Source: Streptomyces hundungensis
GTDB lineage: Bacteria > Actinomycetota > Actinomycetes > Streptomycetales > Streptomycetaceae
Assembly (NCBI RefSeq): GCF_003627815.1
Contig: NZ_CP032698.1
Span: forward strand, 2,232,001 to 2,296,000
Reading direction: 5' to 3'
DNA: 64,000 nt
Shown: positions 12,145-27,029 of the stretch, one piece after another
Layout of the letters: every line of letters starts with the position of its first letter
How positions within the stretch are numbered: position 1 is the first letter of the stretch
Made by a program: the position numbers and the translations under genes
The notes under the pieces: generated by a model
Told to the model about the DNA's origin: nothing
Databases searched by the model: none
What the model saw: the letters and a program-made list of their open reading frames with translations, nothing else

Positions 12145-13311
12145 GTGCGAGCGTATGTGAGCCGCGGGCAGCTGAGCAGCGAGCGCGCCCCCGGCGGGCG
12201 GGGCTCCACCTTCGACGCCAAGGAGGTCGACGCCCTCGCCCGGCGCGGCGGCCGCAGGGAGCCCCATTCCGCCGGTGCGGGCGGCGAGCTGACGTTCCGC
12301 ACCGCGCTCACCCTGATCGACAAGGACCGCTACTACTACCGCGGCGTCGACGCGGTCGAACTCGCCACCGCCTACGGCTTCGAGGAGGTCGCGGAGTGGG
12401 TGTGGACCGGGCAGCTGACGCACGGTCCGCGCTTCACCGCGCCGCCGCGGTTCCTGGACGCGGCCCGGCTCGCGGTCGGCGCACTGCCCGCGCACAGTGG
12501 CGCGATGGACCGGCTGCGGGCCGCGGCGGTCGCGGTCTCGGCGGCCGATCCGCTGCGCTTCGACCTCGATCCCGCGGCGGTCCTGGGCTGTGGCCGCATG
12601 TTGATCCCGACCCTGGTGGGGGCGCTGCCGACGGTGGGCGCGGAGCACCGGGGCGAGGGCCGGCTCGCCTGGCAGCTGTGGCGGCGCCTGACCTCACTGG
12701 CCCCTGACGAGCAGTCAATTCGCTTGCTCGACACGGCACTTGCCCTACTCATCGACCACGACCTGGCCGCCTCCACGCTCGCCGTCCGGGTGGCGGCCTC
12801 CGCCCGCGCCCATCCGTACGCCGTGGTCTCGGCGGGGCTCGGCGCCCTGGAGGGGCCGTTGCACGGCGCCGCCAGCGGCCTTGCCCACCGCACCCTGGCG
12901 GAGGTGCTCGAACGCGGCGGCGCGGCCCCGGTCGTCGCCGACCATCTGCGTTCGGGGCGGCGGGTGCCGGGCCTCGGCCACCGTCTCTACCCGGGAGAGG
13001 ACCCGCGCGCCCAGGCCCTGTTCGCGCTGCTCGACGCGATCCCCGAGGCCCGCGACGCGCTCGCCGCGGCGCGCGACGTGATCGACACGACGGCCCGGCA
13101 CACCACGCTGCACGCCAACGTGGATCTGGCCCTGGCCGTCATGAGCGTCGCGTTCAAGATGCCCGCCGAGGCCGGCGAGACGGTGTTCGCGGTGGCCCGC
13201 ACGGCGGGCTGGATCGCCCACGCCCTGGAGGAGTACGCGGAACGCCCCCTGCGGATGCGTCCCAGCGGCCACTACATCGGCCCCCGCCCGCCGCGCCCGC
13301 TGCCCGTCTGA
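12145..13311 (+). CDS. Citrate synthase-like protein with partial N-terminal helix-turn-helix, 5'-truncated
   Basis: From a GTG at 12145 the frame gives 388 residues. Residues 3-30 (AYVSRGQLSSERAPGG, FDAKEVDALARR) match the second half of the MerR/excisionase-like helix-turn-helix that precedes this citrate-synthase subtype in streptomycetes; the first half is absent. The catalytic domain follows, with His in GPLHGAA, His in GLGHRLYPGEDPRA and Asp in HANVDLALAVM, all expected for citrate synthase. The GTG start has no ribosome binding site and appears to be a chance codon at the junction with the divergent gene. The body of the enzyme looks intact. Confidence 0.8.
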   Translation: MRAYVSRGQLSSERAPGGRGSTFDAKEVDALARRGGRREPHSAGAGGELTFRTALTLIDKDRYYYRGVDAVELATAYGFEEVAEWVWTGQLTHGPRFTAPPRFLDAARLAVGALPAHSGAMDRLRAAAVAVSAADPLRFDLDPAAVLGCGRMLIPTLVGALPTVGAEHRGEGRLAWQLWRRLTSLAPDEQSIRLLDTALALLIDHDLAASTLAVRVAASARAHPYAVVSAGLGALEGPLHGAASGLAHRTLAEVLERGGAAPVVADHLRSGRRVPGLGHRLYPGEDPRAQALFALLDAIPEARDALAAARDVIDTTARHTTLHANVDLALAVMSVAFKMPAEAGETVFAVARTAGWIAHALEEYAERPLRMRPSGHYIGPRPPRPLPV

Positions 13312-13330: not shown

Positions 13331-13370
13331 GCCCCGGGCCGCCGCGCGGGTGTGCGCGGCGGCCCGGGGC
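13331..13370. terminator. Bidirectional hairpin terminator
   Basis: A perfect 17-bp stem (13331-13347 with 13354-13370, GCCCCGGGCCGCCGCGC and complement) with a 6-base loop separates two converging genes, the citrate synthase and the first beta-helix glucanase. Confidence 0.85.
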
Positions 13371-13419: not shown

Positions 13420-15873
13420 TCAGGGGGCGTACGCCTCGAACTCGCTGAACTGGGCGGCCGGCCAGCCGGTGTTGGCGGTCACCGTGAGCCGCAGATAGCG
13501 GGTGGTGGTGTTCGCGGGCAGGGTGAGGGTGGCCCGGTTGCCGGTGGCCGGGTCGAAGGTGTAGCCGCGGCTCGCGAGGAGTTGCCCGTAGGAGCCGTTG
13601 TCGGTGCTGCCGAGCACGGACAGCGTCTGGGTACGGGCGCCCCAGGCGGTCGCGGGCGGCAGCTTCAAGACCAGCCGTCCGACGCTCCGTACCGAGCCGA
13701 GATCGACGGTGATCGACTGCGGGAAGGCGTTGTTGGCGCTCTCCCAGTAGGTGTTGGCGTCGCCGTCGACGGCCTTGGCCGCGTCGTAGACCTGGGTGTG
13801 CGAGGTCTCGGTGACCGGGCGCCCCTTGGCGAGGTCGGGGTCGGCGGGCGGGGTGCTGGGCGACGGCGAGCCGGGACCGGTGGGTGACGGGCTGCTCGGG
13901 GGCGTGGTGGAGCCGCCGTGGTCGTAGTTGGGTTTCGGCCACTCACCGCAGTACGTGGCGGGCAGCTTGCCGTTCCAGCCCGAGTTGCCCGCGCCCTGGG
14001 TGAGGGCGAGGTTGCCGCCGAGGCAGCTGTAGACCGGCTCGGAGAACCCGAGGTTCTTCGCCGTGACCCCGGCCATGCTGAGCTGGGCGGGGTCGTTGAA
14101 CTGGAGGGCGAAGGTGCCGGTGCCGTCGATGTTCACTCGGGAGAAGGAGACGCCCTTGGTGGTGCCGGACACGAAGTGGATGGCCGCGTAGGAGCTGTCC
14201 AGGATGTCGGTGTCGGTGACGTTGACCGCCGCCTTGTCCATGGTGCTGTTACGGGAGTCGAACCAGACCGCGCCGATCGGGAACGGCCAGCCGAGGTCCG
14301 CGTTGCCCGCTCGGATGGTGGTGTTGCGGGCCAGTGTGATGGTGCCCTGGACATCGGTGCCGCTGCCGGGGTTGACGCCGTCGAACCGGTTGCCGACGTG
14401 CAGCCCGCCGCCGTTGGTGACCGTGTCGGCGACGACGTTGTCGGTGGCCGCGTTGTCCCTGCCCCCGTACAGGGCGATGTTGTTGGCGAGGACGGGCGCG
14501 ACCACGGTGTTGTTCTGGAACGTGTTGTTGGCGTCGGTCACGGTGTCCGACCACATGGCCAGACCGTCGTCACCGGTGTTGCGCAGAAAGGTGTTCTCGA
14601 CCGAGGAATGGGTCACTCCCCAGTGGAAGTTGACGCCGTCCGCCGTCTGATCCAGGATCCGGCTGTTCTTTATATGGAAGCCATCCATGGGGCCGTCCAT
14701 CCAGGCACCCACCTTGGTGTGCTGGAGCCATACATTGTCGACGGTGGAGTTGCTGAGGGCGCCGCCGATCCCGTTGACCTGGTCCTCGTCGATCCGCTCG
14801 GTGATCTCGCCCATCAGCGCGAAGTCCTTCAGGACGACGTCCCGGCTGGGCCCGCCCGCCTCGTAGGGGCGTATCCCTCCCTTGTACCCGCCGCCGCCGA
14901 CGTACTTGCCGTAGATGCCGGCGGCCCGGGTGCGGTCGGTGGAGCTGCGGCCGGTCAGCACCGAGTACCAGGGTCCCGCCCCGGCCAGGGTCACCTGGTC
15001 CACCACCACATGGTCGGTGAGCTTGAAGGTGCCCGTGGGGATGTAGACCACCTTGGCCTGGGCCTTTCCGGCGTCGACCGCCCGCTGGAAGGCGGAGGTC
15101 GAGTCGGCCGCACCGCTCGCGTCGGCGCCGTAGTCCACCACGGACAGCGAACCCGCGGGCCGGCCCACCGGGTCCGGTACGAGTTCGAAGTCGGCGAGGT
15201 CCACGACGGCCCAGGGGGTCGCGGCGGTCGACGGCAGCGTCACCCTGACCTTCGCACCCTGGGGCAGGGTCCTGCCCAGCAGCGCGCGGGTCTCGTCGTA
15301 GAAGTGGTGGGGCTTGTCGCCCGGCTGGTTCTGGAAGGGGTAACTGCCGTAGAACCAGCCGTACTTGGAGGTGAAGGTGAGGTCCTTCAGCTTGGCGCCG
15401 CCGGAGCTGAGTTCGACGGGCGCGCTGATGCCGGTGCCCGCCGCGTTGTCCGGGACGCTGTAGCGGATGTCGACGGCGTTGGCGGCTCTGGGCAGCGTGA
15501 ACTCGACGTACTGGCCCGCCGCGTCGAGCTTCACCGCGCTGCGGCCGGAGGCCTCCGAGGGCAGCGTGGTGTAGGTGCGGTCGGGGCCGATGACCGTGCC
15601 GTTGGTGGCGGCGGCCTCCGCCTCCAGCTCGGTGAACGGCACGGTGGCGCCCCGGCCCGCCACGGCCAGCGGGGACAGCGGTGCGGATTCGGCGGCCGAG
15701 GCCGGGGCGCCGCCGCCGAGCCCGGCCGCGCCCAGTGCCACGGCGCAGGCGAGCGAGGCCACCGCGGCGGCGGCCCGCCGGGCGGCCGCGGTGCGCCCGG
15801 GGACCGCCCCGGCGGGCGCGGAGGGCGGTGGCTCCTGACGTACGGCGTCGATCGCCGCTCTGATCATGCGCAT
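13420..15873 (-). CDS. Secreted beta-helix glucanase, probable GH87 alpha-1,3-glucanase, with C-terminal discoidin domain
   Basis: The 817-residue protein has a long Arg/Ala-rich signal peptide ending near ASA at about 60, a carbohydrate-binding-like domain (about 75-220; EASGRSAVKLDAAGQYVEF), a right-handed beta-helix (about 230-650), a Pro/Ser/Thr linker, and an F5/8 type C (discoidin) domain (about 690-817). In the helix, ADGVNFHWG and NTGDDGLAMWSD supply the Asp residues expected at the GH87 active site, where one Asp and an Asp pair catalyse inverting hydrolysis of alpha-1,3-glucan. Either ATG 1 or ATG 3 could start; AAAGGGAG lies upstream. It is last in the sugar-transport operon. Family assignment is by motif and layout, so pectate-lyase-like relatives remain possible. 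Confidence 0.72.
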   Translation of the reverse strand: MRMIRAAIDAVRQEPPPSAPAGAVPGRTAAARRAAAAVASLACAVALGAAGLGGGAPASAAESAPLSPLAVAGRGATVPFTELEAEAAATNGTVIGPDRTYTTLPSEASGRSAVKLDAAGQYVEFTLPRAANAVDIRYSVPDNAAGTGISAPVELSSGGAKLKDLTFTSKYGWFYGSYPFQNQPGDKPHHFYDETRALLGRTLPQGAKVRVTLPSTAATPWAVVDLADFELVPDPVGRPAGSLSVVDYGADASGAADSTSAFQRAVDAGKAQAKVVYIPTGTFKLTDHVVVDQVTLAGAGPWYSVLTGRSSTDRTRAAGIYGKYVGGGGYKGGIRPYEAGGPSRDVVLKDFALMGEITERIDEDQVNGIGGALSNSTVDNVWLQHTKVGAWMDGPMDGFHIKNSRILDQTADGVNFHWGVTHSSVENTFLRNTGDDGLAMWSDTVTDANNTFQNNTVVAPVLANNIALYGGRDNAATDNVVADTVTNGGGLHVGNRFDGVNPGSGTDVQGTITLARNTTIRAGNADLGWPFPIGAVWFDSRNSTMDKAAVNVTDTDILDSSYAAIHFVSGTTKGVSFSRVNIDGTGTFALQFNDPAQLSMAGVTAKNLGFSEPVYSCLGGNLALTQGAGNSGWNGKLPATYCGEWPKPNYDHGGSTTPPSSPSPTGPGSPSPSTPPADPDLAKGRPVTETSHTQVYDAAKAVDGDANTYWESANNAFPQSITVDLGSVRSVGRLVLKLPPATAWGARTQTLSVLGSTDNGSYGQLLASRGYTFDPATGNRATLTLPANTTTRYLRLTVTANTGWPAAQFSEFEAYAP

Positions 15874-15920
15874 GAGGGACTCCCTTTCGTGGGGGACGGA
15901 GCGGGGATGAGCGGACGGGG

Positions 15921-17492
15921 TCAGGCGCGCAGCCAGACCGCCGTGTCCTTGGGGAGCAGCCCGTCGGCGAGGGGGCCGCTCGCGAGCAGGAGCGAGCGGT
16001 GCGCGGGCAGCACGGCCGGCTCCTCGCCGAGGTTGACCACACAGCGCAGGCCGTCCTCACGGGCGAACGCGAGCACCCCGTCCGGGGCGGCGAGCCAGGT
16101 CAACTCTCCGTCGCCGAAGCCCGGTTGGGTGCGTCGCAGCAGGAGCGCCCGCCGGTAGAGCGCCAGCATGGAGGAGGGGTCGCCGGCCTGGCGGTCGGCG
16201 GCGTACCGCTCCCAGCCGGGGGGCTGCGGCAGCCAGGGCGTGGTCCACGGCTCGGCCGTCCAGGGCAGCGGGACGCGGCAGCCGTCGCGGCCGGGGTCGA
16301 CCCCGCCGGAGCGGAAGTGCATGGGGTCCTGGATGCGGTCGAGTGCGATGTCCGCCTCGGGCAGGCCCAGTTCCTCGCCCTGGTAGAGGTAGACCGAGCC
16401 GGGCAACGCGAGCGACAGCAGGGCCGCGGCGCGTGCCCGGCGGGTGCCGAGCGCCAGGTCGGTGGGGGTGCCGAAGCGCTTGGTCGCGAAGTCGAAGCCG
16501 GTGTCCTGGCGGCCGTAGCGGGTGACGGTGCGGGTCACGTCGTGGTTGCACAGCACCCAGGTGGCGGGCGCGCCGACCGGGGCGTGTTCGGCGAGCGTGT
16601 CGTCGATGGAGGCGCGCAGCAGCGCGGCGTCCCAGGGGCAGGTGAGGAAGGTGAAGTTGAAGGCGGTGTGCAGTTCGTCGGGGCGCAGATAGCGGGCGAA
16701 GCGCTCGCTGTCGGGCAGCCACACCTCACCGACGAAGACCGCCCCGAACTCGTCGGCGATCGCCCGCCAGGAGCGGTAGATGTCGTGGAGTTCGTCGCGG
16801 TCGATGTAGGGGTGCCGGTCGACTCCCTCGACGAACTCGGGCAGTTCCGGGTCCTTGGCGAGCAAGGCCGCCGAGTCGATGCGCACGCCCGCCACGCCGC
16901 GTTCGAACCAGAACCGCAGCACGTCCTCGTGTTCCTCGCGCACCGCGGGGTGGGCCCAGTTGAGGTCGGGCTGCTGGGGGGTGAACAGATGGAGGTACCA
17001 CTCGCCGTCCTCGACCCGGGTCCAGGTCTCGCCCGCGAACTGCGAGGGCCAGGCGTTCGGCGGCAGTTCGCCGTGCTCGCCGCGGCCGGGCCGGAAGTGG
17101 AAGAGCTCTCGCTCGGGGCTGCCGGGCCCGGCCGCGAGGGCCGCCTGGAACCATATGTGCTGGTCCGATATGTGGTTCGGCACTATGTCGACGATGGTGC
17201 GCATATTGAGGGCGCGGGCCTCGACGATCAGCTTCTCGGCCTCGGCCAGGGTGCCGAAGGCGGGGTCGATCGTGCGGTAGTCGGCCACGTCGTAGCCGCC
17301 GTCGGCGAGCGGGGACAGATACCAGGGGGTGAACCACAGGGCGTCGACGCCCAGTTCGGCGAGGTAGGGCAGGTTCGCCCGGACGCCCGCGAGGTCGCCG
17401 GTGCCGTCGCCGTCACCGTCGGCGAAGCTGCGTACGTACACCTGGTAGATGGCGGCGGAGCGCCACCAGTCGTCGCTTTCGTGGGCTGCCAC
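15921..17492 (-). CDS. GH13 alpha-glucosidase (AglA-like), intracellular
   Basis: The 523-residue protein is a (beta/alpha)8 GH13 enzyme of the alpha-glucosidase/oligo-1,6-glucosidase type. Visible motifs are DIVPNHISDQH, the nucleophile Asp in GVRIDSAALL (about 206), the acid Glu in FVGEVWLPD (about 250) and the third Asp in CNHDVTR. No signal peptide is present, so it should split imported gluco-oligosaccharides in the cytoplasm. The GTG start has AAAGGACC nearby. It lies 48 bp upstream of the secreted glucanase gene and 110 bp after the permease gene, in one probable operon. Preference for alpha-1,3, alpha-1,4 or alpha-1,6 bonds cannot be read from the sequence. Confidence 0.9.
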   Translation of the reverse strand: MAAHESDDWWRSAAIYQVYVRSFADGDGDGTGDLAGVRANLPYLAELGVDALWFTPWYLSPLADGGYDVADYRTIDPAFGTLAEAEKLIVEARALNMRTIVDIVPNHISDQHIWFQAALAAGPGSPERELFHFRPGRGEHGELPPNAWPSQFAGETWTRVEDGEWYLHLFTPQQPDLNWAHPAVREEHEDVLRFWFERGVAGVRIDSAALLAKDPELPEFVEGVDRHPYIDRDELHDIYRSWRAIADEFGAVFVGEVWLPDSERFARYLRPDELHTAFNFTFLTCPWDAALLRASIDDTLAEHAPVGAPATWVLCNHDVTRTVTRYGRQDTGFDFATKRFGTPTDLALGTRRARAAALLSLALPGSVYLYQGEELGLPEADIALDRIQDPMHFRSGGVDPGRDGCRVPLPWTAEPWTTPWLPQPPGWERYAADRQAGDPSSMLALYRRALLLRRTQPGFGDGELTWLAAPDGVLAFAREDGLRCVVNLGEEPAVLPAHRSLLLASGPLADGLLPKDTAVWLRA

Positions 17493-17601
17493 GGGACGGT
17501 CCTTTCGGGCAGGTCGGATCCCGCCGCCGGCCCCGTTGGTGCGGCGGGGGCAGGGTGGATGGGGCCGGCGGTGGAGTGCGGGGAGGGCGGAGCCGTCGGG
17601 G

Positions 17602-18477
17602 TCAGCCCTTGAGGCCGCCCGCGGTGAGACCGCTCATGATGTTGCGCTGGAACACGATGAAGATGAGCAGGGTGGGGATCGACGCCATGGCGAGGGCGGC
17701 CGTGAGCCAGTTCTCGGGCACCCCCTGGGCGAGCGAGTAGATGCCCACATTGAGGGTCTGTTTGCCGGGGTCGGGCAGGGTGAGCATCGGCCAGAGGAAG
17801 TCCTTCCAGACGCCGACCACCGCGAAGATGGAGACGACGCCGAGGATCGGCCGGGAGAGGGGCAGCACCACCGAGCGCAGGGTCCGCAGCGGGGACGCGC
17901 CGTCGATGGAGGCGGCGTCCAGGAGTTCGCGCGGGATCGAGTCGAAGAACCGCTTCAGCAGGAAGATGTTGAAGGCGTTGGTGACGGACGGCAGCCAGAT
18001 CGCCCAGGGGGTGTTGAGCAGGTTGCGCTTGAAGATCGGCACGTCGAGGACGGTCAGATACTGCGGTACGACGAGGACGGCCGCCGGGATCATGAGGGTG
18101 GCCAGCATCATCGCGAGGATCGCCTTGCCGAACACCGGGCGCAGCTTGGACAGCGAGTAGGCGGCGGCCACGTCCAGGACCAGTTGGAAGGCGAGCGCCC
18201 CGAAGGCGTACCAGACCGTGTTGAGCAGCAGTTTGGCGAAGTCCATCACGCGCCAGGCGTTGGTGAGGTTGTCGGTGTGCACGCCATGCGGGACGAGCGT
18301 CGGCGGGATCCGGGTGAACTCCTCGGTGGACTTGAGCCCGTTGACGGCCATCCAGTACAGCGGCCCGATGAAGACGAGCGTGAACAGCAGCATCACCAGG
18401 GTGAGGACGGTCCAGTAGACGACCTTGCCCCGGGGGCGGCCGAGGGTGGCCGGTGAGATGAGTGTGCGTGTCGACAT
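17602..18477 (-). CDS. Sugar ABC transporter permease (MalG-like)
   Basis: The 291-residue membrane protein has about six transmembrane segments and the ATPase-docking EAA loop near 195-215 (ELLDAASIDGASPLRTLRSVVLPLSRP region). Length and motif fit the second permease of CUT1-type carbohydrate importers. The short cytoplasmic N-terminus begins MSTRTLISPATLG. It follows the MalF-like gene by 61 bp and would form the membrane channel with it. No ATP-binding subunit is encoded nearby. Confidence 0.93.
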   Translation of the reverse strand: MSTRTLISPATLGRPRGKVVYWTVLTLVMLLFTLVFIGPLYWMAVNGLKSTEEFTRIPPTLVPHGVHTDNLTNAWRVMDFAKLLLNTVWYAFGALAFQLVLDVAAAYSLSKLRPVFGKAILAMMLATLMIPAAVLVVPQYLTVLDVPIFKRNLLNTPWAIWLPSVTNAFNIFLLKRFFDSIPRELLDAASIDGASPLRTLRSVVLPLSRPILGVVSIFAVVGVWKDFLWPMLTLPDPGKQTLNVGIYSLAQGVPENWLTAALAMASIPTLLIFIVFQRNIMSGLTAGGLKG

Positions 18478-18538
18478 GGTTCCTCAGTCCGTATCCGGTC
18501 GTCGTTCCTGTCGTAGCCGTCCCTGCACCCCGACGGAG

Positions 18539-19492
18539 CTAGGTGTCGCTGTCGCGGCTGAGGCGTACGTACATCGCCGAGAAGCCCGCGAGCAGCACCA
18601 GCAGGCAGAGGCCGAGCGCCGCGGCGCCGCCGTAGTTGTTGAAGTTGAAGGCGTACTGGTAGATGAGGTAGACCACGGTCGTCGTGGAGCCCTCGGGTCC
18701 CGCGCCGTTGGTGAGCAGGAACGGCTCGGTGAACACCTGCATGGTCGCGATGATCTGCATCAGGAACATCAGCGACAGCACGAGCCGGGTCTGCGGCACC
18801 GTGACGTGCCAGATCTTGCGCAGCAGCCCCGCGCCGTCGAGCTCGGCCGCCTCGTACAGCTCCCCCGGAATGGCCTGGAGCGCGGCCAGATAGACGAGGG
18901 TGGCGCTGCCCATGTTCATCCAGGTCGCCGCGATCACCACCGAGACCATGGCGGTGTCGGTGGACTGGAGCCACTGCTGCGCGGGCAGGCCGAACAGGTC
19001 GAAGATCCGGTTGAACAGGCCGTATCCGGGGTCGTAGAGGTATTTGAAGAGCAGCACCGAGGCGACCGGCGGCAGCATCACCGGCAGATAGACGAGAAGC
19101 CTCAAGTAGCCCTGGCCGTGCCGGAGTTCATTGAGCAGTACGGCGACCAGGAAGGGCAGCACGAAGCCGAGGACCAGGGCGAGGCCCGTGAAGAGGAGGG
19201 TGTTGCGCCAGGCCTGCCAGAACGCCGGGTCGTGGAAGACGTAACTGAGGTTGGACCAGCCGGCCCAGGTGGTGCGCCCGTCCTTGGTCTTCTGGAAGGC
19301 GAGCACGAACTCCCTGACCATCGGGTACCAGGAGAAGAACGCGAAGCAGAGCACGGCGCCGATCAGGAAGCCGTGCGCGGTGAGGTTGCGCCGCAGCGCC
19401 CGGGTGAGCCCGCTGCGCCCGGGCTGTCCGGGCCGCTCGGCGCCCTGGGGCGGGAGGGCCGTCTCCCGTGCGGGCAGTGTGGAGGCCGACAT
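18539..19492 (-). CDS. Sugar ABC transporter permease (MalF-like)
   Basis: The 317-residue permease has about six membrane spans and an EAA-type loop (GELYEAAELDGAGLLRKIW) near 215-235. The start is the ATG at 19492 with AGGAG seven bases upstream; the open frame extends further but into the binding-protein gene region with no homology. It lies 65 bp after the binding-protein gene and pairs with the MalG-like permease. The family imports oligosaccharides; given its neighbours, glucose-containing oligosaccharides from alpha-glucan are the likely cargo. Confidence 0.93.
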   Translation of the reverse strand: MSASTLPARETALPPQGAERPGQPGRSGLTRALRRNLTAHGFLIGAVLCFAFFSWYPMVREFVLAFQKTKDGRTTWAGWSNLSYVFHDPAFWQAWRNTLLFTGLALVLGFVLPFLVAVLLNELRHGQGYLRLLVYLPVMLPPVASVLLFKYLYDPGYGLFNRIFDLFGLPAQQWLQSTDTAMVSVVIAATWMNMGSATLVYLAALQAIPGELYEAAELDGAGLLRKIWHVTVPQTRLVLSLMFLMQIIATMQVFTEPFLLTNGAGPEGSTTTVVYLIYQYAFNFNNYGGAAALGLCLLVLLAGFSAMYVRLSRDSDT

Positions 19493-19557
19493 CGTCACTC
19501 CTGAGTCCGGGGCGGGCGGGGCCGGAGCGTGGGCTCCGGCCCCCGCCGCCGTACGCG

Positions 19558-20979
19558 CTACTGGTTCGCCAGGACCTGGTCGACCCCTGTCTGGGCGGTC
19601 GAGAGCAGCTTCGCGATGTCGGCGTCCTCGTTGGTGAGCACCCCGGACATCGCGTTGTCGAGGACCTTGTAGACCTCCTGCGCCTTGGGCGGCTCGGCCT
19701 TGCCGGGGACCGGATTGCCGAGGTAGGGCGCGAAGTTGGCGACCGGCATGGTGGCGTTGTCGGTACGGGCCTTGAGGTCGGTGGCCTTCACGTCGCCGGT
19801 GAAGAAGTTGGGTTGCGGCACGCCGACCGGCAGGTGGTCGGCCTTGGTGCGGGCCCAGTCGAACTGGCCCTTGCCCGGCGAGAGGTTCTTGAAGTTGAGC
19901 CAGGCGATCGCGGCCTTGATCTTGTCGGGCGAACTGCCCTGCTTGATCATGTAGCCGTTGCCGCCGGTCAGGGTGGCCTTGGCACCGGGGATCGGGCCCA
20001 TGCCGAAGTTCTCGTACTTCGCGCCGAGTTGCTGGACCATGTACGCGATGTCGTCCGGCGCGGCCAGGAACATGCCCAGCTTGTCGGCGGTGATCTGCTT
20101 CTGGAGGTCGCCCCACTTCAGGAGCTGGGTCGGGCTCATGCTCCGGTCGCTCCAGCGCATGTCGTGCAGCTGCTGGAGGAGCTGCTTGCCGGTGGCGTTG
20201 TTGAAGGCGGCCTTGCCGTCGGCGCCCACCACGTCGCCGCCGAGGCTGTACATCGCGGCGGTGAAGTGCCAGCCGCCGGTGTTCTCGGCGCTGTACTCCC
20301 CGTAGCCGTATACGCCGCCGCCGAGCCCCGCGATCGCCCGCGAGTCGGCGCGGACCTCGTCCCAGGTGGCCGGCGGCTTGTCGGGGTCGAGCCCGGCCCG
20401 CTGGAACAGCTTCCGGTTGATCATGATGCCCATCTGGTAGTTGCTGGTGGGCAGGCCGTACATCTTGCCGTCCTTCTTGTACACCCCCATGACGGCCGGG
20501 TCGATGCTGTTCAGGGCGGGGACGGAGGCGGCGGTGACGTACGCCGAGATGTCGGCGGCGCCGTTGTTGTCCAGGACCTGCTGGAGATCGGTGAAGTACG
20601 TGTAGAAGACGTCGGGTTGGGACTTCGCCTTCAGGGCCGCGGTGAAACGGGGCGGCTCCTCGCACTGCCCCGGCGTCGACCTGCCGACGATGTGGACGTT
20701 CGGATACGTCTTGTTGAACGTCGCGACGTCCTGCTTCCACTCCTTGAGCTCGGCGGCCTTGGCGGCAGGCGGCATGCAGTCGATGGTGAGGTCCACCGTG
20801 GTCTTGGGGTCGAGCGGGGCCGCGGGGTCACTCGATCCGGTGCCGGGCTTGCTGTCGCCGCTTCCGGTGTCGCTGCTGGTGCCACAGGCGGCGAGCGCGG
20901 TGAGGGCGAGGGCGCCGGCCAGGGCCGTGGCGGCGGTGCGGCGAAGGCGTGGTGCGGGGCTGAACCAGGTGCGTCTCAT
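19558..20979 (-). CDS. Extracellular sugar-binding lipoprotein of ABC importer
   Basis: The 473-residue protein starts with a lipoprotein signal (LTALAAC, lipid-bearing Cys32) and a Gly/Ser/Thr-rich tether, followed by a type 1 extracellular solute-binding fold (MalE-like, about 60-460). It would capture oligosaccharides at the outside of the membrane and hand them to the two permeases encoded downstream. It is first in the operon binding protein, MalF-like, MalG-like, GH13, GH87. The 212-bp gap upstream separates it from lacI and must hold the operon promoter. Confidence 0.92.
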   Translation of the reverse strand: MRRTWFSPAPRLRRTAATALAGALALTALAACGTSSDTGSGDSKPGTGSSDPAAPLDPKTTVDLTIDCMPPAAKAAELKEWKQDVATFNKTYPNVHIVGRSTPGQCEEPPRFTAALKAKSQPDVFYTYFTDLQQVLDNNGAADISAYVTAASVPALNSIDPAVMGVYKKDGKMYGLPTSNYQMGIMINRKLFQRAGLDPDKPPATWDEVRADSRAIAGLGGGVYGYGEYSAENTGGWHFTAAMYSLGGDVVGADGKAAFNNATGKQLLQQLHDMRWSDRSMSPTQLLKWGDLQKQITADKLGMFLAAPDDIAYMVQQLGAKYENFGMGPIPGAKATLTGGNGYMIKQGSSPDKIKAAIAWLNFKNLSPGKGQFDWARTKADHLPVGVPQPNFFTGDVKATDLKARTDNATMPVANFAPYLGNPVPGKAEPPKAQEVYKVLDNAMSGVLTNEDADIAKLLSTAQTGVDQVLANQ

Positions 20980-21062
20980 CGGGAGGACCCCTTAGGGAGG
21001 AGCGTGGAAGGCCCGTCGCTGACGGCAGCGGGGCGCGGCACACTCAACCACCGGCGCCACAA

Positions 21063-21082
21063 CAGCGCAATATCTCGCGCTG
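21063..21082. promoter_or_regulatory. Inverted repeat upstream of the sugar-transport operon
   Basis: CAGCGC (21063-21068) and GCGCTG (21077-21082) form a perfect 6-bp inverted repeat with an 8-bp AT-rich spacer, about 85 bp before the binding-protein start. It could be an operator or part of the promoter. It does not closely match the repeats at lacI. Confidence 0.35.
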
Positions 21083-21138
21083 ATTTCGTAAAACTTCGAC
21101 AGTGCGTTGTACGCGGCGGGCAGGGTCCGGGCACACAA

Positions 21139-21169
21139 CAGCGCGCCGGGTGGCGGGCCCGGCGCGCTG
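21139..21169 (-). terminator. Hairpin terminator after lacI-type gene
   Basis: CAGCGCGCCGGG (21139-21150) pairs with CCCGGCGCGCTG (21158-21169), 12 bp perfect with a 7-base loop, 23 bp past the LacI-family stop. It separates the regulator from the transport operon, which runs in the same direction. Confidence 0.8.
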
Positions 21170-21191
21170 GGTGACGAGGAGAGGCGATCGG

Positions 21192-22199
21192 CTAGCGCGG
21201 TACCTGCGCGGTCGAGCCGCGCACAACCAGTTCGGGCTCGAAGAGGAGCTCACCCGGGGGCACCACACCGCCCTGGATCTGCGCGGAGAGCAGCTCTACG
21301 GCGGCGCGGCCCATCGCCTCGATGGGCTGGCGCACGGTGGTCAGTGGAGGCTCGGTGCAGTTCATGAACGCCGAGTCGTCGTAGCCGACCACGGAGACGT
21401 CCCGGGGCACGTCGAGCCCGCGGCGCCGGGCGGCCCGCACGGCGCCCAGCGCGAGCGGGTCACTGGCGCAGATGATGCCGGTGACGCCGCGCTCCAGGAG
21501 GCGGGAGGTCGCGGCCTGGCCGCCCTCGAGGGAGAACATCGCGCGCTCGACGCGGTCCTCGGGGAGGGCGGAGCCGGCCGCGGCGGCGAGCGCCCGGGCC
21601 GCGTCCAGCTTGCGCCGCGAGGGGACGTGGTCGGGCGGCCCGAGCACCAGGCCGATGTGCTGGTGACCCAGGGACGTCAAGTGGCGCCAGGCCTGTTCCA
21701 TCGCCACGGCGTCGTCGCAGGCGACCACGGGGAAGTCGAGGTGCTCGATGGCGGCGTTGATGAGGACGACCGGCACCTTGCGGTCGGCGAGCTGCTGATA
21801 GTGCCCGTGCGGGGCGTCGCGCTGCGCGAAGAGCCCGCCCGCGAAGACGACGCCGGAGACCTGCTGCTGGAGGAGGAGATCGACGTAGTCGGCCTCGGAG
21901 ACGCCGCCCTTGGTCTGGGTGCACAGCACGGGCGTGAGCCCCTGCTGGGCGAGGGCTCCGCCGATGACCTCGGCGAACGCGGGGAAGATCGGGTTCTGCA
22001 ACTCGGGCAGGACCAGGCCGACCAGGCGGGCGCGCTCGCCGCGCAGCTGGGTCGGGCGCTCGTAGCCGAGCACGTCGAGCGCCGTGAGCACGGCCTGCCG
22101 GGTGGATTCGGAGACTCCCGGTTTGCCGTTGAGCACCCGGCTGACCGTGGCCTCGCTGACTCCCACCTTCTTCGCCACCTGAGCAAGTCGTCGCGTCAT
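21192..22199 (-). CDS. LacI-family transcriptional regulator of the sugar locus
   Basis: The 335-residue protein has a classic LacI helix-turn-helix (RRLAQVAKKVGVSEATVSRV, residues 3-22, then LNGKPGVSE) and a periplasmic-binding-like effector domain from about 60. The ATG at 22199 begins MTRRLAQV; an earlier in-frame start gives 47 unrelated residues and would cover the operator region. It is placed between the long glucanase gene and the transport operon, all on one strand, and is the obvious candidate to repress both until an oligosaccharide inducer binds. Repeated CGCAAG half-sites just upstream suggest it represses itself. Confidence 0.93.
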   Translation of the reverse strand: MTRRLAQVAKKVGVSEATVSRVLNGKPGVSESTRQAVLTALDVLGYERPTQLRGERARLVGLVLPELQNPIFPAFAEVIGGALAQQGLTPVLCTQTKGGVSEADYVDLLLQQQVSGVVFAGGLFAQRDAPHGHYQQLADRKVPVVLINAAIEHLDFPVVACDDAVAMEQAWRHLTSLGHQHIGLVLGPPDHVPSRRKLDAARALAAAAGSALPEDRVERAMFSLEGGQAATSRLLERGVTGIICASDPLALGAVRAARRRGLDVPRDVSVVGYDDSAFMNCTEPPLTTVRQPIEAMGRAAVELLSAQIQGGVVPPGELLFEPELVVRGSTAQVPR

Positions 22200-22202
22200 G
22201 AG

Positions 22203-22236
22203 CGCAAGACTAGCGCAAGCCATGCAAGCGGTTTGC
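22203..22236. promoter_or_regulatory. Candidate LacI-family operator cluster at the lacI gene
   Basis: CGCAAG occurs at 22203 and 22214, and the palindrome GCAA-GCGGT-TTGC lies at 22224-22236. LacI-family sugar regulators of Streptomyces bind inverted repeats of this kind (TTGC/GCAA half-sites). The cluster lies 4-37 bp before the lacI start, where it would block expression. Confidence 0.55.
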
Positions 22237-22289
22237 GTTGATGGCCAGGACGATCCCCGGCTCGGGGCGGCCCGCTTCCAGGGCGTGCG

Positions 22290-22322
22290 CGTACCGCCCC
22301 GGGGTGCCCCCGGGGCGGTACG
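22290..22322 (-). terminator. Hairpin terminator after the long glucanase gene
   Basis: CGTACCGCCCCGGGG (22290-22304) pairs perfectly with 22308-22322 around the 3-base loop TGC, 15 bp past the glucanase stop. Confidence 0.85.
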
Positions 22323-22336
22323 GCGATGGACCTCCG

Positions 22337-25300
22337 TCACGGATTGATGTTGATCTTGAAGGTCGATGTGGTGTTGCGGATGTCCTGGGCGTTGCCGCTG
22401 AGCTTGAGGCTGGTGAACGTCACCTCGCCGACGGCCGGCCCCTGTCCGGGCTCGGGCAGCTCATTGGCCCAGATCCCGATGCCGGACTTGGCGTCGAAGG
22501 CGTCACCGCTCTTCTTCGCGCCGCTGATGCTGACGTTGGTCAGCACACTGTCCTTGATGGGGTACAGCGGCGTACTGCCGTTGTACTTCGTCTGGAACAC
22601 GATCCCGGAGTACGTCGGATCGACGATGTCGAGGTCGCTGATGCGAATCCCCTGGAACACGTACTCCGCCGAGTACATCCACAGCGCGCCGAAGGCCTGC
22701 GCGCCCCAGAAGTGTCCGCCGGAGCGCACCAGGGAGATGCCCTGGAAGGTCGTGGGATCCGTCCCGAAGCCGAGGGCGGGGATCGAGCCGAACTTCAGCG
22801 TGCCGATGGTCAGTCCGGGATAGGTGAGCATGTCGGCGGCGTACAGGTTCCGGAAGGTGTTGGCGGTGCCTCCGTAGACCGCGAATCCGGCGGCCCGCCA
22901 GGTCAACAGGGCGCTGAGGTTCTCGAAGACGTTGCTTGTCTCGTCCGCGTTGGTGATGTCGGTCGCCGGGAACAGCGCGAAGCTGTCGTCGCCGGTGGAG
23001 CGGGCCTCCACATTGCTGATGGTGTTGTCGCTGCTGCCGTTGGTGAGGTTGATCCCGTCCGCGTACAGATCGCGGACCCGGGAGTTCTTGATGGTGATGT
23101 GGTCGGTGTTGGTGCCCCAGTACAGGCACATCATGTGCTCGACCCACACATTGTCGATCGTCATGTTGGCGACGTTGGCGAAGTTGAACACCTTGCCGGG
23201 ACCGTCGTTGCGCGAGGTGTAGTTGCCGAAGAACCCGAACCCGCTGAACGTGGAGCCGTTGGCGGAGGACTGGACGTCGAAGCCCGCGTCGGTGTTCTCC
23301 TGGTCGGGCGGGGTGGCGAAGCGGGTGAACCAGGGGCCCGCGCCGACCAGCTTCACCGCCTTGCCGTAGACCTGGAACTTGTTGCTCGTGGAGTAGGTGC
23401 CGGGCGGCAGATAGACGCCGACGAGCTTGCCGCTGGTGTCCATCCGCACCTTGTCCAGGGCGTTCTGCACGTCCTGCTGGGCGGTGCCGGCGGGCACGGC
23501 GTAGGCGGCCGGGTCGGGATTCGGGATCTGGGTGACCTGCTCCAGGTTGATGAAGTCGATCGCGTAGGTCGAGGAGTTCGCGGCGTCCTTCTGGAGGCGG
23601 ATGGTGCTGCCCGCCTTCACGGTGTCACCGAGCAGGACGTTGGCCTCGTCGTAGATGTGGCGCGGGCCGCCGGAGCTCGGCGCGTTGTTGGGGCTCGCCT
23701 CGGCGCCGTACTGCCACATGTACTTCGAGCTCAGGTCGATGGCCTTGCGGAAGGCGCCGTCGACGTAGAGGTCGAGGCTCGCGCTGGTGCCACCGCCGCC
23801 CGGCGAGTCCGGGATGGAGAAGCGCGTCACCAGGCTGTTGGTGTCGGCGCGGGCGGTGAACTGCACATAGTTTCCTGTGGAGTTGAGGGTGACGGCCTTG
23901 CGCCCGGAGGCCTCGCCCGCGAGATCGCCGATGGCCCGGTTGGGCCCGACGACCTGGGCGCCGCCGCCCGTCACACCGTCCTCCGCCTCATAGGTGTCGT
24001 AGGGCATGTTGGCGCCGCGCCCCACGAAGAACGCCTGCGCGCTGGTGTTGTTGGCGCGCTTGACCGGCAGCTCGTTGCCGTCGTCGGCGATCACCACCTT
24101 CGCGGTGTACTTGCCGTTGGCGGCCGTCCAGCTGCCGAGGCTCACCGGGGCCGCGGTGGCGCCCGGGTTGAGCGTCCCGTTGTAGGCGCCGGTGAGGGTC
24201 TTCACCGTGGCGCCCTTGTCGTCGAGCAGGGTCAGGGTGATGGCGTGGGCGCCGCCGGTGGAGGCGAGCGTGCCCTGGTTCTTCAGCGTCACGGAGAAGG
24301 TGACGGCCTGGCCCGCCGAGGGCGCGCTCGGCGACCAGTTGACCCCGGAGGCGATCAGGTCGCTGGAGTCGACCGGCTTGATCACCAGGGGGCTGCCCGT
24401 GAAGCTGTTGTTGGTGTCGTTCTGTTCGATGACGGTGTTGTCCGGATCAACGACCGCGCTCAGCGGATAAGTTCCCGCGTCATGGGTGCCGATGGAGGCG
24501 CTCACCGTCTGCGAGGCGCCGGCCGCCAGCGCCCCCACGGTGGCGGTGGCCGCCTTGGAGCCGCCGAGCTGGAAGGCGACGGTGGTGGCGGGCGAGGCGC
24601 TGGTCCCCTTGTTGTGCACGGTCGCCGACAGGGTCACGGCGTCCGATTCGACCGGCGCGGACGGGGCGGCCGTCACCGCGGTGACCTCCAGGTCCGGGTT
24701 GGGCGAGGGCACCCCGACGACCTGGAACTCGGCGATCTGCCCGCCCGTGGCCCCGGTGTTGGAGGTGAACCTGAGCTGGACGTCGGCGACCCGGGCCATG
24801 ACCGGTATGCCCACGGTGTTCCCGCTCGTCGGGTCGAAGGTGTAGTCCTTGGCCGCGACCAGGGAGGTGTACCCGGAGGCGCTCTGCTCGCGCCCGAGCA
24901 CCTCGATGTTCTGGGTGCGCCGGCCCCAGCCGCTGTCCGGGTTGAGCTTGAGGACCACCGTGTTGGTGTCCGCGTTGGCGCCGAGCTTGACGGTGAGGGT
25001 GCTCGGGTAGCCGCCCGGCGCGCTCTCCCAGTAGGTCGTCGTGCTGTTGTCGTTGGCGTTCGCGGCGACGAAGGTGAACGTGGACGAGGAGGCCGAGATG
25101 GGCTTGCCGACCGCGAGGTTGGAGCCGTCCCCGGTCGATGTGCCGTTACGGGTCAGGGTGTTGCTGGCGCCGGACTGGTTGCCCGCCGCGTCCTTGGCCC
25201 GTACGCAGTAGGAGACGGTGACGGTGACCGGCCGGCTGTCGGTGTACGTGGTGACATCGCCCGCCACGCTCTTGAGCAGCTGGTTGTCGGCGTAGATGTC

Positions 25301-26644
25301 GTAGCCGGTGACGCCCACGTTGTCGCTGGAGGCCGCCCAGGTGAGCTTGATCTGTCCGGCCGCCGGTTCCGTATAGGCGAGGTTCGCGGGCGCGGTCGGC
25401 GCCTGGGTGTCGCCCGAACTCCCCTTGCGGGTCACGGTGTTGCTGTTGGCGGACTGGTTGCCCGCCGCGTCCTTGGCCCGCACGTAGTAGGCGACCGTGG
25501 CGCTCGCGGGCTGGGTGTCGGTGTAGGTGGTGACATTGCCCGCGACGCTGGTGCGCAGCTCGCCGCCCGCGTAGATGTCGTACCCGGTGACGCCGGTGTT
25601 GTCGGTGGCCGCGTCCCAGGTCAGCCGGATCTGGCCGGTGGCGGGCTCGGTGTAGGCGAGGTTCCCGGGCGCGGACGGCGGCTGGGTGTCTCCGCCGGTC
25701 GGACCGTAGATCTCCAGCTCGGAGAGCTGACCGCCGGGCTGCGCGGTGTTGCCGGTGATCAGCACCCGTACGTAGCGGGTGGTGACCGCGGTGAACGTGA
25801 TCGGCACGGTGAGGCCGCCCGCCGGGGTGAAGTCATACCCCTGCGCAGCGGTCAGATCCAGGAAGTCGGTGCCGTTGGCGCTGCCCTGGATCCTGAGGGT
25901 CTGGGTGCGGGCTCCCCAGCCGTCCGGCAGCTTGAGGACCACCTTGTCGACCGGCACGGTGGCGCCGAGGTCGGCCTGGATCCATTGCGGGAAGGCGTTG
26001 TTGGCGCTCTCCCAGTAGCTCGCCTTGTTGCCGTCGTTGGCGTTGGCGGCGACATAGGTCTGGGTGGTGCTGCTCGCGGTGAGCGTCTTGCCGAGGGCGA
26101 GGTTGGCGCTGCTCGATCCGGCGGACGCGTGCACTTCGAGGGTGGAGAGCTGGGCCGCCTGCCAGCCGGTGTTCGCCGTGATGTCGATCCGTACGAACCG
26201 GGCCCGTGCGACGGCGAACCCTATCGTCACCGTGTTGCCCGACGCCTGCGTGAAGCTGTACGCGGTGGAGCCCACCAGGGTGCTGAAGCTCGTGCCGTCG
26301 GCGCTGCCCTGCACGGACAGGGTTTCCTTGCGGTCGCCCCAGGACGCGGGGAGCTTGAGGACGACCTCGTCGATCGTGCTCGTGGTGGCGAGGTCGGCCT
26401 GGACCCACTGGGGGAAGGTGCTGCCGGCGCTCTCCCAGTAGGTGGACTGGTCGCCGTCGGTGACGTTCTTGGCGAGGTAGGTGCCGTTCGCACCGGAGGC
26501 CGACGCGGGCTTTCCCGCGGCGAGGTCCGGGCCGCCCGCCGCCGAGGCGGTGAGCGCCGGCCAACCGATCATGAACAGGCTGGTGGCGAGAACCGCGGCG
26601 AGCACCCTCATCCGCGTACGCCATCTCCAACGGTGCGTTCTCAT
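22337..26644 (-). CDS. Large secreted multidomain beta-helix glucanase, probable GH87, with discoidin, Fn3 and CARDB modules
   Basis: The 1435-residue protein starts at ATG 26644 with a signal peptide ending near TASAAG (about 37). Modules in order, by pattern: two F5/8 C (discoidin) domains (about 40-310), two fibronectin type III domains (about 320-500), a third discoidin-like domain (about 510-645), two CARDB domains (about 650-880), a carbohydrate-binding-like domain (about 920-1060) and a right-handed beta-helix to the end. ADGINLTNGSSDN and STGDDSFALFPA align with the ADGVNFHWG and TGDDGLAMW motifs of the 817-residue protein, so both probably share the GH87 fold and active site. The many binding modules suit attachment to insoluble alpha-1,3-glucan, as in fungal walls or bacterial mutan. 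Substrate is inferred. Confidence 0.72.
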   Translation of the reverse strand: MRTHRWRWRTRMRVLAAVLATSLFMIGWPALTASAAGGPDLAAGKPASASGANGTYLAKNVTDGDQSTYWESAGSTFPQWVQADLATTSTIDEVVLKLPASWGDRKETLSVQGSADGTSFSTLVGSTAYSFTQASGNTVTIGFAVARARFVRIDITANTGWQAAQLSTLEVHASAGSSSANLALGKTLTASSTTQTYVAANANDGNKASYWESANNAFPQWIQADLGATVPVDKVVLKLPDGWGARTQTLRIQGSANGTDFLDLTAAQGYDFTPAGGLTVPITFTAVTTRYVRVLITGNTAQPGGQLSELEIYGPTGGDTQPPSAPGNLAYTEPATGQIRLTWDAATDNTGVTGYDIYAGGELRTSVAGNVTTYTDTQPASATVAYYVRAKDAAGNQSANSNTVTRKGSSGDTQAPTAPANLAYTEPAAGQIKLTWAASSDNVGVTGYDIYADNQLLKSVAGDVTTYTDSRPVTVTVSYCVRAKDAAGNQSGASNTLTRNGTSTGDGSNLAVGKPISASSSTFTFVAANANDNSTTTYWESAPGGYPSTLTVKLGANADTNTVVLKLNPDSGWGRRTQNIEVLGREQSASGYTSLVAAKDYTFDPTSGNTVGIPVMARVADVQLRFTSNTGATGGQIAEFQVVGVPSPNPDLEVTAVTAAPSAPVESDAVTLSATVHNKGTSASPATTVAFQLGGSKAATATVGALAAGASQTVSASIGTHDAGTYPLSAVVDPDNTVIEQNDTNNSFTGSPLVIKPVDSSDLIASGVNWSPSAPSAGQAVTFSVTLKNQGTLASTGGAHAITLTLLDDKGATVKTLTGAYNGTLNPGATAAPVSLGSWTAANGKYTAKVVIADDGNELPVKRANNTSAQAFFVGRGANMPYDTYEAEDGVTGGGAQVVGPNRAIGDLAGEASGRKAVTLNSTGNYVQFTARADTNSLVTRFSIPDSPGGGGTSASLDLYVDGAFRKAIDLSSKYMWQYGAEASPNNAPSSGGPRHIYDEANVLLGDTVKAGSTIRLQKDAANSSTYAIDFINLEQVTQIPNPDPAAYAVPAGTAQQDVQNALDKVRMDTSGKLVGVYLPPGTYSTSNKFQVYGKAVKLVGAGPWFTRFATPPDQENTDAGFDVQSSANGSTFSGFGFFGNYTSRNDGPGKVFNFANVANMTIDNVWVEHMMCLYWGTNTDHITIKNSRVRDLYADGINLTNGSSDNTISNVEARSTGDDSFALFPATDITNADETSNVFENLSALLTWRAAGFAVYGGTANTFRNLYAADMLTYPGLTIGTLKFGSIPALGFGTDPTTFQGISLVRSGGHFWGAQAFGALWMYSAEYVFQGIRISDLDIVDPTYSGIVFQTKYNGSTPLYPIKDSVLTNVSISGAKKSGDAFDAKSGIGIWANELPEPGQGPAVGEVTFTSLKLSGNAQDIRNTTSTFKININP

Positions 26645-27029
26645 GTGTCCCCGATCTGCGCGACTAGGGTTTCTGCATGGAAGAGCTACGTATTTTGCGC
26701 TGAGCGGTGAGAGAGTTGCAGAGATGTGTCCATGCGTCCATCCCTGTGACACACCCGGGAAACCCGCGCCCCTCCGTACCGCTGAACCGGAACGATCGCT
26801 TTCCTCCCTGTCGTAGGCGCATGCTGCGGCTTTCCCGGCAGCGCGACAGGCGCCCGCAAGATATCCGCAAACCACGCAAGCGACTTTCATGGGGGCGGGT
26901 GGCCCCCGGGGAGCCGGCTGTGCTGCCCGTCACGGGCGAGTGGCTGGTCCCGGGAAAGGGCCGCGAAGACCGTGCCGCGATCCCCCGGGGATTTCGGGAT
27001 GCGTACCGGGCCGTCTAACGTGCCTGTCC
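26645..27029. other. 385-bp divergent intergenic region, glucanase / sensor kinase
   Basis: This gap must hold promoters for the minus-strand glucanase and the plus-strand sensor kinase. The only structure I recognise is a LacI-type half-palindrome at 26876-26888 and CGCAAG/CGCAAA motifs around 26855-26880. No coding sequence is supported. Confidence 0.6.
26876..26888. promoter_or_regulatory. Candidate second operator for the LacI-family regulator
   Basis: GCAAGCGACTTTC matches the lacI-proximal palindrome GCAAGCGGTTTGC at 10 of 13 positions and is preceded by CGCAAACCAC. It lies about 235 bp before the long glucanase start, farther than a typical repressor site, so the assignment is tentative. 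Confidence 0.35.

What the first reader, a model, noticed from the sequence alone, without database searches (positions are those of the whole stretch)
13420..26644. Self-contained alpha-glucan (probably alpha-1,3-glucan) utilisation locus inside the conserved core
Two large secreted beta-helix enzymes with GH87-like Asp motifs, an importer (binding protein and two permeases), an intracellular GH13 alpha-glucosidase and a LacI regulator lie together, all on one strand, flanked by core genes (citrate synthase-like genes and a two-component system). The parts form a complete route from insoluble glucan to glucose. A dedicated alpha-1,3-glucan import system would be a less-described trait; fungal wall, dental mutan or nigeran-type polymers are possible targets.
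Basis: partly seen in the sequence, partly recalled or inferred. Interest (0 to 1): 0.75.

Follow-up and report, generated by a model that had tools for sequence, protein, structure and literature searches.

The report
Alpha-1,3-glucan eating gene cluster
This Streptomyces chromosome carries a compact gene set that looks built to cut up alpha-1,3-linked glucan (as in fungal cell walls), import the pieces and turn them into glucose; related sets recur in other soil actinobacteria, apparently with the import machine swapped in some.

Summary
Seven minus-strand genes encode two secreted GH87 enzymes (A, 26647-22337; B, 15873-13420), a LacI regulator, a lipoprotein sugar-binding protein, two permeases and a GH13 alpha-glucosidase. 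Both GH87s match solved alpha-1,3-glucanases (E 2e-117, 7e-118) and keep the three catalytic Asp. It is not the maltose system, which sits separately at 6.12 Mb. A LacI-type operator (CGCGAnATnTTGCG) precedes the importer in 40 of 41 loci; a related site precedes GH87-A. The chromosomal site is empty in 14 of 16 other genomes fetched, so the block is accessory, though common (55-56% of sampled species). New here: the importer (binding protein plus permeases) appears to have been exchanged between lineages while regulator and glucosidase stayed. Not settled: the substrate (alpha-1,3-glucan or nigeran) and the linkage specificity of GH13; nothing was measured. Filed as a new variant of a known kind, the Gram-positive polysaccharide-utilisation locus.

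The parts
22337..26647 (-). GH87-A, secreted multimodular alpha-1,3-glucanase-type enzyme (3 discoidin/F5-8C domains, fn3-like stretches, 2 CARDB, CatAgl_D1+D2)
   Evidence: Pfam (fn3 itself below cut-off); PDB 6k0m E 2.3e-117; catalytic Asp 1197, 1220, 1221
26855..26865 (-). candidate LacI site GATATCTTGCG about 210 bp upstream of the presumed GH87-A start
   Evidence: one of two GAnATnTTGCG sites in the window; same element at matching place in 6 of 6 near relatives, though the core is not rare genome-wide
22290..22322 (.). perfect 15-bp hairpin after GH87-A, likely terminator
21192..22199 (-). LacI-family regulator
   Evidence: Pfam; NCBIfam (no equivalog over cut-off)
21139..21169 (.). perfect 12-bp hairpin after lacI, likely terminator
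21064..21081 (-). LacI-type operator AGCGCGAGATATTGCGCT in front of the importer operon
   Evidence: its core is conserved in 40 of 41 loci and near-unique per genome
19558..20979 (-). sugar-binding protein (SBP_bac_1), lipoprotein by its LAAC motif (recalled signature)
   Evidence: best PDB 7bvt, a binding protein for an alpha-linked gluco-tetrasaccharide
18539..19492 (-). permease 1
   Evidence: PF00528
17602..18477 (-). permease 2
   Evidence: PF00528
15921..17492 (-). GH13 alpha-glucosidase, no signal peptide evident in the sequence
   Evidence: PDB 8yie E 6.3e-146; GH13 motifs RIDSA, GEVWL, NHD (motifs recalled, positions)
13420..15873 (-). GH87-B, secreted alpha-1,3-glucanase-type enzyme with one C-terminal discoidin domain; 47 bp after GH13, so probably in the importer operon
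   Evidence: PDB 7c7d E 7.2e-118; catalytic Asp 412, 435, 436
13331..13370 (.). perfect 17-bp hairpin after GH87-B, likely end of the operon

Best explanation
A self-contained alpha-1,3-glucan utilisation locus of the Gram-positive type. GH87-A and GH87-B are secreted, bind insoluble glucan through their discoidin domains and cut alpha-1,3 bonds (family assignment shown; binding and activity inferred). The released nigero-oligosaccharides are caught by the lipoprotein binding protein and imported by the two permeases, powered by an unlinked shared ATPase of the MsiK/UgpC type at 4.018 Mb (candidate found, partnership inferred). The cytoplasmic GH13 splits the oligosaccharides to glucose (inferred). 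LacI holds two transcription units shut, importer-GH13-GH87-B and GH87-A, until an imported sugar releases it (sites shown, binding inferred). The likely natural substrate is fungal wall alpha-1,3-glucan, which may include alpha-1,4 stretches (recalled).
For: GH87 membership and catalytic Asp (residues from passages of PMC6814745, and PMC10696023). The genome's only two GH87 matches are both here. GH87 and binding protein: 160 both, 127 neither, 8 discordant of 295 genomes; 157, 129 and 9 if five weak binding-protein matches are not counted. Neighbourhood conserved in several actinobacterial families. One operator per locus, shared across the two importer types, rare elsewhere in genomes; a looser version lies upstream of stand-alone GH87-B genes in 14 of 28 loci against 16 of 1120 random windows. 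The maltose system is a separate locus whose binding protein matches the maltose-binding chain 8art at 4.5e-217. The closest solved binding protein holds alpha-linked gluco-oligosaccharides (PMC7676653 passages).
Against: No activity, binding or growth data. Six of 166 genomes with the binding protein have no GH87 match (two of the six have only a weak binding-protein match), so the importer can live without it. In 9 of 40 fetched loci no GH87 hit lies within the stretch. The binding protein's best solved relative is distant and binds an alpha-1,4/1,6 sugar, not nigerose. Several GH87-B relatives are named mycodextranase by sources. Solved GH13 relatives include many named for other substrates, such as oligo-1,6-glucosidase and sucrose isomerase. 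Co-occurrence is not corrected for relatedness. The first operator pattern, with two mismatches allowed, was no commoner in the window than chance (3 against 2.27). Looking for the GH87-A site in more distant relatives gave 2 of 41 loci against 63 of 1965 random windows, though 13 of the 41 rows, the window among them, had no start called.
Confidence: 0.72

Rival explanations
1. The locus is for nigeran (alternating alpha-1,3/alpha-1,4 glucan): GH87-B at least is a mycodextranase, and GH13 cleaves both bond types.
For: Some relatives of GH87-B at 57-66% identity are named mycodextranase by sources; GH87 contains mycodextranases from actinomycetes (PMC10696023 passages; PMC13421300 passages).
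Against: Best solved match of GH87-B is 7c7d, the Streptomyces thermodiastaticus mutanase, and of GH87-A is 6k0m, an alpha-1,3-glucanase. Source names are not evidence of activity. No sequence of the characterised mycodextranase was found for comparison.
Confidence: 0.17
2. Two modules that merely sit together: GH87 enzymes as wall-attacking antifungal enzymes, and an importer plus GH13 for maltodextrins.
For: Six genomes have the binding protein without GH87; 30 of 80 GH87-B-centred loci lack the importer, five of them on stretches under 15 kb; solved GH13 relatives include many of other specificity.
Against: 160/127/8 co-occurrence, conserved neighbourhood across families, a similar operator upstream of stand-alone GH87-B genes, and a separate genuine maltose locus.
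Confidence: 0.08

Closest known systems
Lachnoclostridium phytofermentans nigerose cluster (GH65 nigerose phosphorylase, GH31_u1, ABC transporter genes, LacI; putative GH87 nearby), as told in PMC9061262 (passages)
   Same: GH87, ABC importer and LacI regulator in one region; proposed role in nigerose degradation
   Different: Uses GH65 phosphorolysis and GH31; here a GH13 and two GH87s, in an actinobacterium. Not compared by sequence
Prevotella melaninogenica predicted PUL with PmGH87 (PMC13421300, passages)
   Same: GH87 in a predicted utilisation locus
   Different: TonB-dependent transporter and SusD-like protein, with GH97 and GH99. The paper says that to its authors' knowledge no PUL containing GH87 had been characterised
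Streptomyces maltose locus, here at 6.12 Mb
   Same: Same plan: LacI, binding protein, two permeases, GH13; GH13s 55-57% and LacIs 51-54% identical
   Different: Binding proteins 23% identical, no copy of the operator CGCGAnATnTTGCG, no GH87 hit
Characterised GH87 alpha-1,3-glucanases: Agl-FH1 (6k0u in PMC13421300; 6k0m belongs to the same set by recall), Agl-KA (5zru), Streptomyces thermodiastaticus enzyme (7c7d)
   Same: Catalytic domains and Asp triad
   Different: No import locus is told in the passages I read

Membership tests
GH87 (GH87-A) | CatAgl_D1 + CatAgl_D2 catalytic unit | tested here: met
   254 and 356 bits against cut-off 27
GH87 (GH87-A) | three catalytic Asp, 23 and 1 residues apart (Agl-KA D1067, D1090, D1091; Agl-FH1 D1045, D1068, D1069) | tested here: met
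   D1197, D1220, D1221, aligned with 6k0m and with GH87-B; positions; residues
GH87 (GH87-B) | CatAgl_D1 + D2 and three catalytic Asp | tested here: met
   139 and 67 bits; D412, D435, D436, aligned with Agl-KA 5zru; positions
GH87 (both) | hydrolysis of alpha-1,3-glucan or nigeran | not testable with these tools
   needs enzyme assay
Pectin/alginate lyase (rejected) | stronger match to a lyase family than to GH87 | tested here: not met
   PF12708 60.9 bits on GH87-B, below CatAgl_D1 138.8 and D2 67.1; on GH87-A only Beta_helix (PF13229) and an RGI-lyase sheet domain (PF18370), both below cut-off
Gram-positive polysaccharide-utilisation locus | secreted GH, ABC importer, intracellular GH and regulator in one conserved cluster | tested here: met
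   localisation judged from sequence only
Gram-positive polysaccharide-utilisation locus | co-regulation by the substrate | tested here: inconclusive
   similar operators; no expression data
Carbohydrate ABC importer with shared ATPase | SBP + two permeases, ATPase elsewhere | tested here: inconclusive
   parts met; UgpC-type ATPase at 4.018 Mb over cut-off, with a second, weaker OB_MalK match at 2.496 Mb not examined; that either powers this importer is inferred
Streptomyces MalEFG maltose system | binding protein is MalE | tested here: not met
   8art E 3.7e-8 for this protein against 4.5e-217 for the one at 6.12 Mb

The most novel reading that the evidence does not exclude
The locus is a fixed chassis (LacI, its operator and GH13) on which both ends are exchanged: the importer cassette has been replaced between actinobacterial lineages, and the importer type goes with the kind of GH87 outside, so that uptake is matched to the length or linkage of the oligosaccharides that the enzymes release. 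The operator stays the same across importer types, so a swapped-in transporter is under control at once.
Probability: 0.3. Interest if true: 0.66.

Novelty: new variant of a known kind. Interest (0 to 1): 0.5.

Why it matters
[quoted passage not shown] Secreted GH87 enzymes are studied, but PMC13421300 knew of no characterised utilisation locus with GH87. A common, testable import locus in soil Streptomyces and relatives would help fill that gap, give a marker gene set for feeding on fungal remains, and supply a possible nigero-oligosaccharide binding protein and sensor. The importer exchange is a natural experiment on how uptake specificity follows enzyme products.

Tried and rejected
Rejected: pectate/alginate lyase; maltose locus; core locus of nearly all Streptomyces. 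My first operator guess, AGCGCRA-N4-TYGCGCT, has one exact copy in the window but is no commoner than chance with two mismatches, and a close form was found in the window alone of 41 loci. The upstream regions gave CGCGAnATnTTGCG instead, so that motif was derived from the sequences on which its conservation was then counted. In 50 importer-bearing loci only 7, all Streptomyces, score over 15 with its matrix: in this form the site is specific to the genus.

Led nowhere: a genus search with GH87-B (no answer); a structure model of the binding protein (not completed); the GH87-A upstream site in distant loci (47 loci with GH87-A, 6 left out for short upstream sequence, 2 of 41 with the site). 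I could not place GH87-B against the characterised mycodextranase. The LacI/GH13 pair AmlR/AmlE of Actinoplanes (PMC6828939 passages) and the putative mycodextranase of Paenibacillus JDR-2 (PMC4765114 passages) were not compared by sequence. Papers: nine counted searches, several with capped listings; one search found nothing, probably for its spelling. The listings and the eight papers opened in part showed none that describes this actinobacterial locus; the library lacks most subscription journals. The GH13 ortholog threshold (E 1e-240), the importer-type threshold (E 1e-200) and the loose pattern were set after seeing data. In some searches at most five candidates per genome were scored.

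Agl-KA is 5zru and the 6k0 set is Agl-FH1. The product data for Agl-KA therefore do not bear on GH87-A in particular, and I lowered the novel case from 0.35 to 0.3.

Full report
WHAT IS THERE. Seven genes on the minus strand form the block. In order of transcription: GH87-A (26647-22337, 1436 aa), lacI (22199-21192), binding protein (20979-19558), permeases (19492-18539, 18477-17602), GH13 (17492-15921), GH87-B (15873-13420). Perfect hairpins follow GH87-A, lacI and GH87-B, and none was found between GH13 and GH87-B, which are 47 bp apart (imperfect ones lie between binding protein and permease 1 and between permease 2 and GH13). I infer three units: GH87-A; lacI; binding protein-permeases-GH13-GH87-B.

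THE ENZYMES. Both large proteins carry CatAgl_D1 and CatAgl_D2, the alpha-1,3-glucanase catalytic domains, over Pfam's cut-offs. GH87-A best matches 6k0m (E 2.3e-117); that set is Agl-FH1 of Paenibacillus glycanilyticus (6k0u so named in PMC13421300, passage). GH87-B best matches 7c7d (E 7.2e-118), the Streptomyces thermodiastaticus mutanase (PMC11475409, passages). Agl-KA, 5zru, matches both at about 1e-54 to 1e-53. Agl-KA needs Asp1067, Asp1090 and Asp1091 (PMC6814745 passages) and Agl-FH1 has D1045, D1068, D1069 (PMC10696023 passages). Residues at the same spacing and in the aligned motifs are D1197, D1220, D1221 in GH87-A and D412, D435, D436 in GH87-B. The two catalytic units are only 31% identical, so they are different subtypes. 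The genome has no other match to CatAgl_D2. GH13 shows no evident signal peptide, matches the alpha-glucosidase 8yie (E 6.3e-146) and keeps the GH13 motifs (recalled; positions).

THE IMPORTER IS NOT THE MALTOSE IMPORTER. The binding protein's best solved relative is the distant 7bvt (E 6.9e-20), which binds cyclic maltosyl-maltose (PMC7676653 passages), while the maltose-binding chain 8art gives only 3.7e-8. A profile of 26 sequences keeps 7bvt first, with 8art fourth. The same genome holds a maltose-type locus at 6.12-6.13 Mb with a binding protein, two permeases, two GH13 and two LacI genes, whose binding protein matches 8art at 4.5e-217. No ATPase gene lies in the block; a UgpC/MsiK-type ATPase over the NCBIfam cut-off lies at 4.018 Mb, and a second, weaker OB_MalK match at 2.496 Mb was not examined (the name MsiK is recalled).

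CO-OCCURRENCE. In 295 Streptomyces genomes GH87 (PF22816) is found in 162 and the binding protein (E up to 1e-40) in 166: both 160, neither 127, GH87 only 2, binding protein only 6; Fisher p 3e-73. Five of the 166 have only a weak match (1e-50 to 1e-61); without them the counts are 157, 129, 5 and 4. The GH13 ortholog (E below 1e-240, threshold set after seeing the data) is in 155, and 154 of these have the binding protein. These tests ignore relatedness, so the p-values overstate the evidence.

NEIGHBOURHOOD. I fetched 40 loci of 17-20 kb around the binding protein, 20 with a protein 71-77% identical to the window's and 20 with one 42-51% identical. Binding protein-permease-permease-GH13 is kept in order in 40 of 40 (one, L084, has a GH87 before GH13); lacI lies within the stretch in 33; a GH87 hit in 31 (13 of 20 and 18 of 20). 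Of 80 GH87-B-centred loci, kept from 330 found in genome contigs, 50 hold the importer: Micromonospora and Actinoplanes mostly as lacI-importer-GH13-GH87-B-GH87-A, Microbispora, Planotetraspora, Sphaerisporangium and Acrocarpospora with the importer facing the other way, and six near Streptomyces with the window's own arrangement. Of the 30 without it, mostly Streptomyces, five (L146, L164, L169, L174, L177) are stretches under 15 kb, so some may have it out of sight.

THE SITE. In the window the block lies between a citrate-synthase-like gene and a DcuS-like kinase gene. Five of the 20 loci of the first batch hold the importer core between the same two flanks, four without any GH87 in the stretch and one with GH87-A only. 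I searched 30 chosen genomes for the citrate-synthase-like gene (18 matches including the window) and fetched 16 of the 17 others. No block protein has a match at the site in the 10 that lack the binding protein and in 4 of 6 whose importer lies elsewhere; the other two (L116, L117) keep a lone lacI there, 84-86% identical. What else the short gaps hold was not looked at. The block is therefore accessory, and GH87 genes come and go around a steadier core.

REGULATION. Upstream of the binding protein a site CGCGAnATnTTGCG fits at 10 or more of its 12 fixed bases in 40 of 41 loci and at all 12 in 29. The motif was read off these sequences, so this counts conservation and is no blind test. Searched in 20 genomes that I chose, GCGnGAnATnTTGCG gives 18 hits in 16 genomes, 14 of them in front of the binding protein; the reversed control gives 8. 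The element GAnATnTTGCG occurs twice in the 64-kb window, in front of the importer and in front of GH87-A. All six near relatives have the GATATCTTGCG copy; in five it lies about 5.8 kb from the importer site, as in the window, and in the sixth (L119) the importer site differs by one base and the copy lies near the place expected. These are close relatives and the core is not rare: 109 hits in the six genomes against 64 for the reversed control. So the evidence for the GH87-A site is weak. Upstream of stand-alone GH87-B genes a loose form, CGnnnTnTTGCG, is in 14 of 28 loci against 16 of 1120 random windows, and the tight CGAnATnTTGCG in 5 of 28 against 2 of 1120 (2 of 30 loci dropped for contig ends; the loci are related, and the loose form was chosen). 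In other genera the site differs.

IMPORTER EXCHANGE. Between the two Streptomyces groups (six loci of each) the binding protein is 46% and the permeases 59-60% identical, but LacI is 86% and GH13 82%, as much as within the first group (83% each). LacI rests on only two of the six loci of the first group. In the importer tree the second group's importers join those of Microbispora, Planotetraspora, Acrocarpospora and Actinoallomurus (support 100), away from the first group, with which L065 of the second batch goes (97). In the GH13 and LacI trees both groups lie together in one Streptomyces set (99 and 98), with L065 and the long-branched L084 outside; inside it they are partly sorted, and well-supported branches do not force mixing. 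One Streptomyces clade is rejected for the importer (AU p 0.0012), and the second group plus those other genera is rejected for GH13 (p 4e-5), L084 left out of both tests. These are quick trees, and the groups were named after seeing identities. Genomes with the first importer type more often carry the GH87-A type (56 of 63) than the rest (43 of 97; 42 of 94 without three weak matches; thresholds set after seeing data). I propose that importer type follows enzyme product; this is untested.

LITERATURE. [quoted passage not shown] PMC9061262 (passages) tells of ABC transporter and LacI genes with nigerose phosphorylase and GH31, and GH87 nearby, in L. phytofermentans, so the idea has a precedent. 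PMC11475409 (passages and section 7) reports Streptomyces that use mutan; the words ABC and transporter do not occur in its main text. The searches listed under Tried and rejected showed no paper on this actinobacterial locus.

VERDICT. Observation confirmed; interpretation supported as to kind of system, with the substrate open. New variant of a known kind; interest 0.5.

Noticed in passing
L116 and L117 (unnamed Streptomyces genomes G170, G204): A lone lacI, 84-86% identical, stands beside the citrate-synthase-like gene while the importer operon lies elsewhere in the genome: the regulator seems to have been left behind.
   Followed up: partly
window 19511-19550: 18-bp, 89% complementary hairpin between the binding-protein and first permease genes, possibly setting a higher level of binding protein.
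   Followed up: no
L060, L061: Downstream of GH13 a second, distantly related permease pair (29-33% identity) lies on the opposite strand.
   Followed up: no
G000 6.121-6.130 Mb (L204): The maltose locus holds two GH13 genes and two LacI genes, 51-54% identical to the window's LacI, suggesting that the two systems share ancestry.
   Followed up: partly
window 12145-13311: The second citrate-synthase-like protein is divergent (best NCBIfam score 154 bits against that family's cut-off of 421) and may have another function.
   Followed up: no
Micromonospora loci L180, L187-L189, L191: A recurrent element, TCGATACCTTGC, lies about 125 bp upstream of the binding protein: a candidate operator there (low matrix scores).
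   Followed up: no
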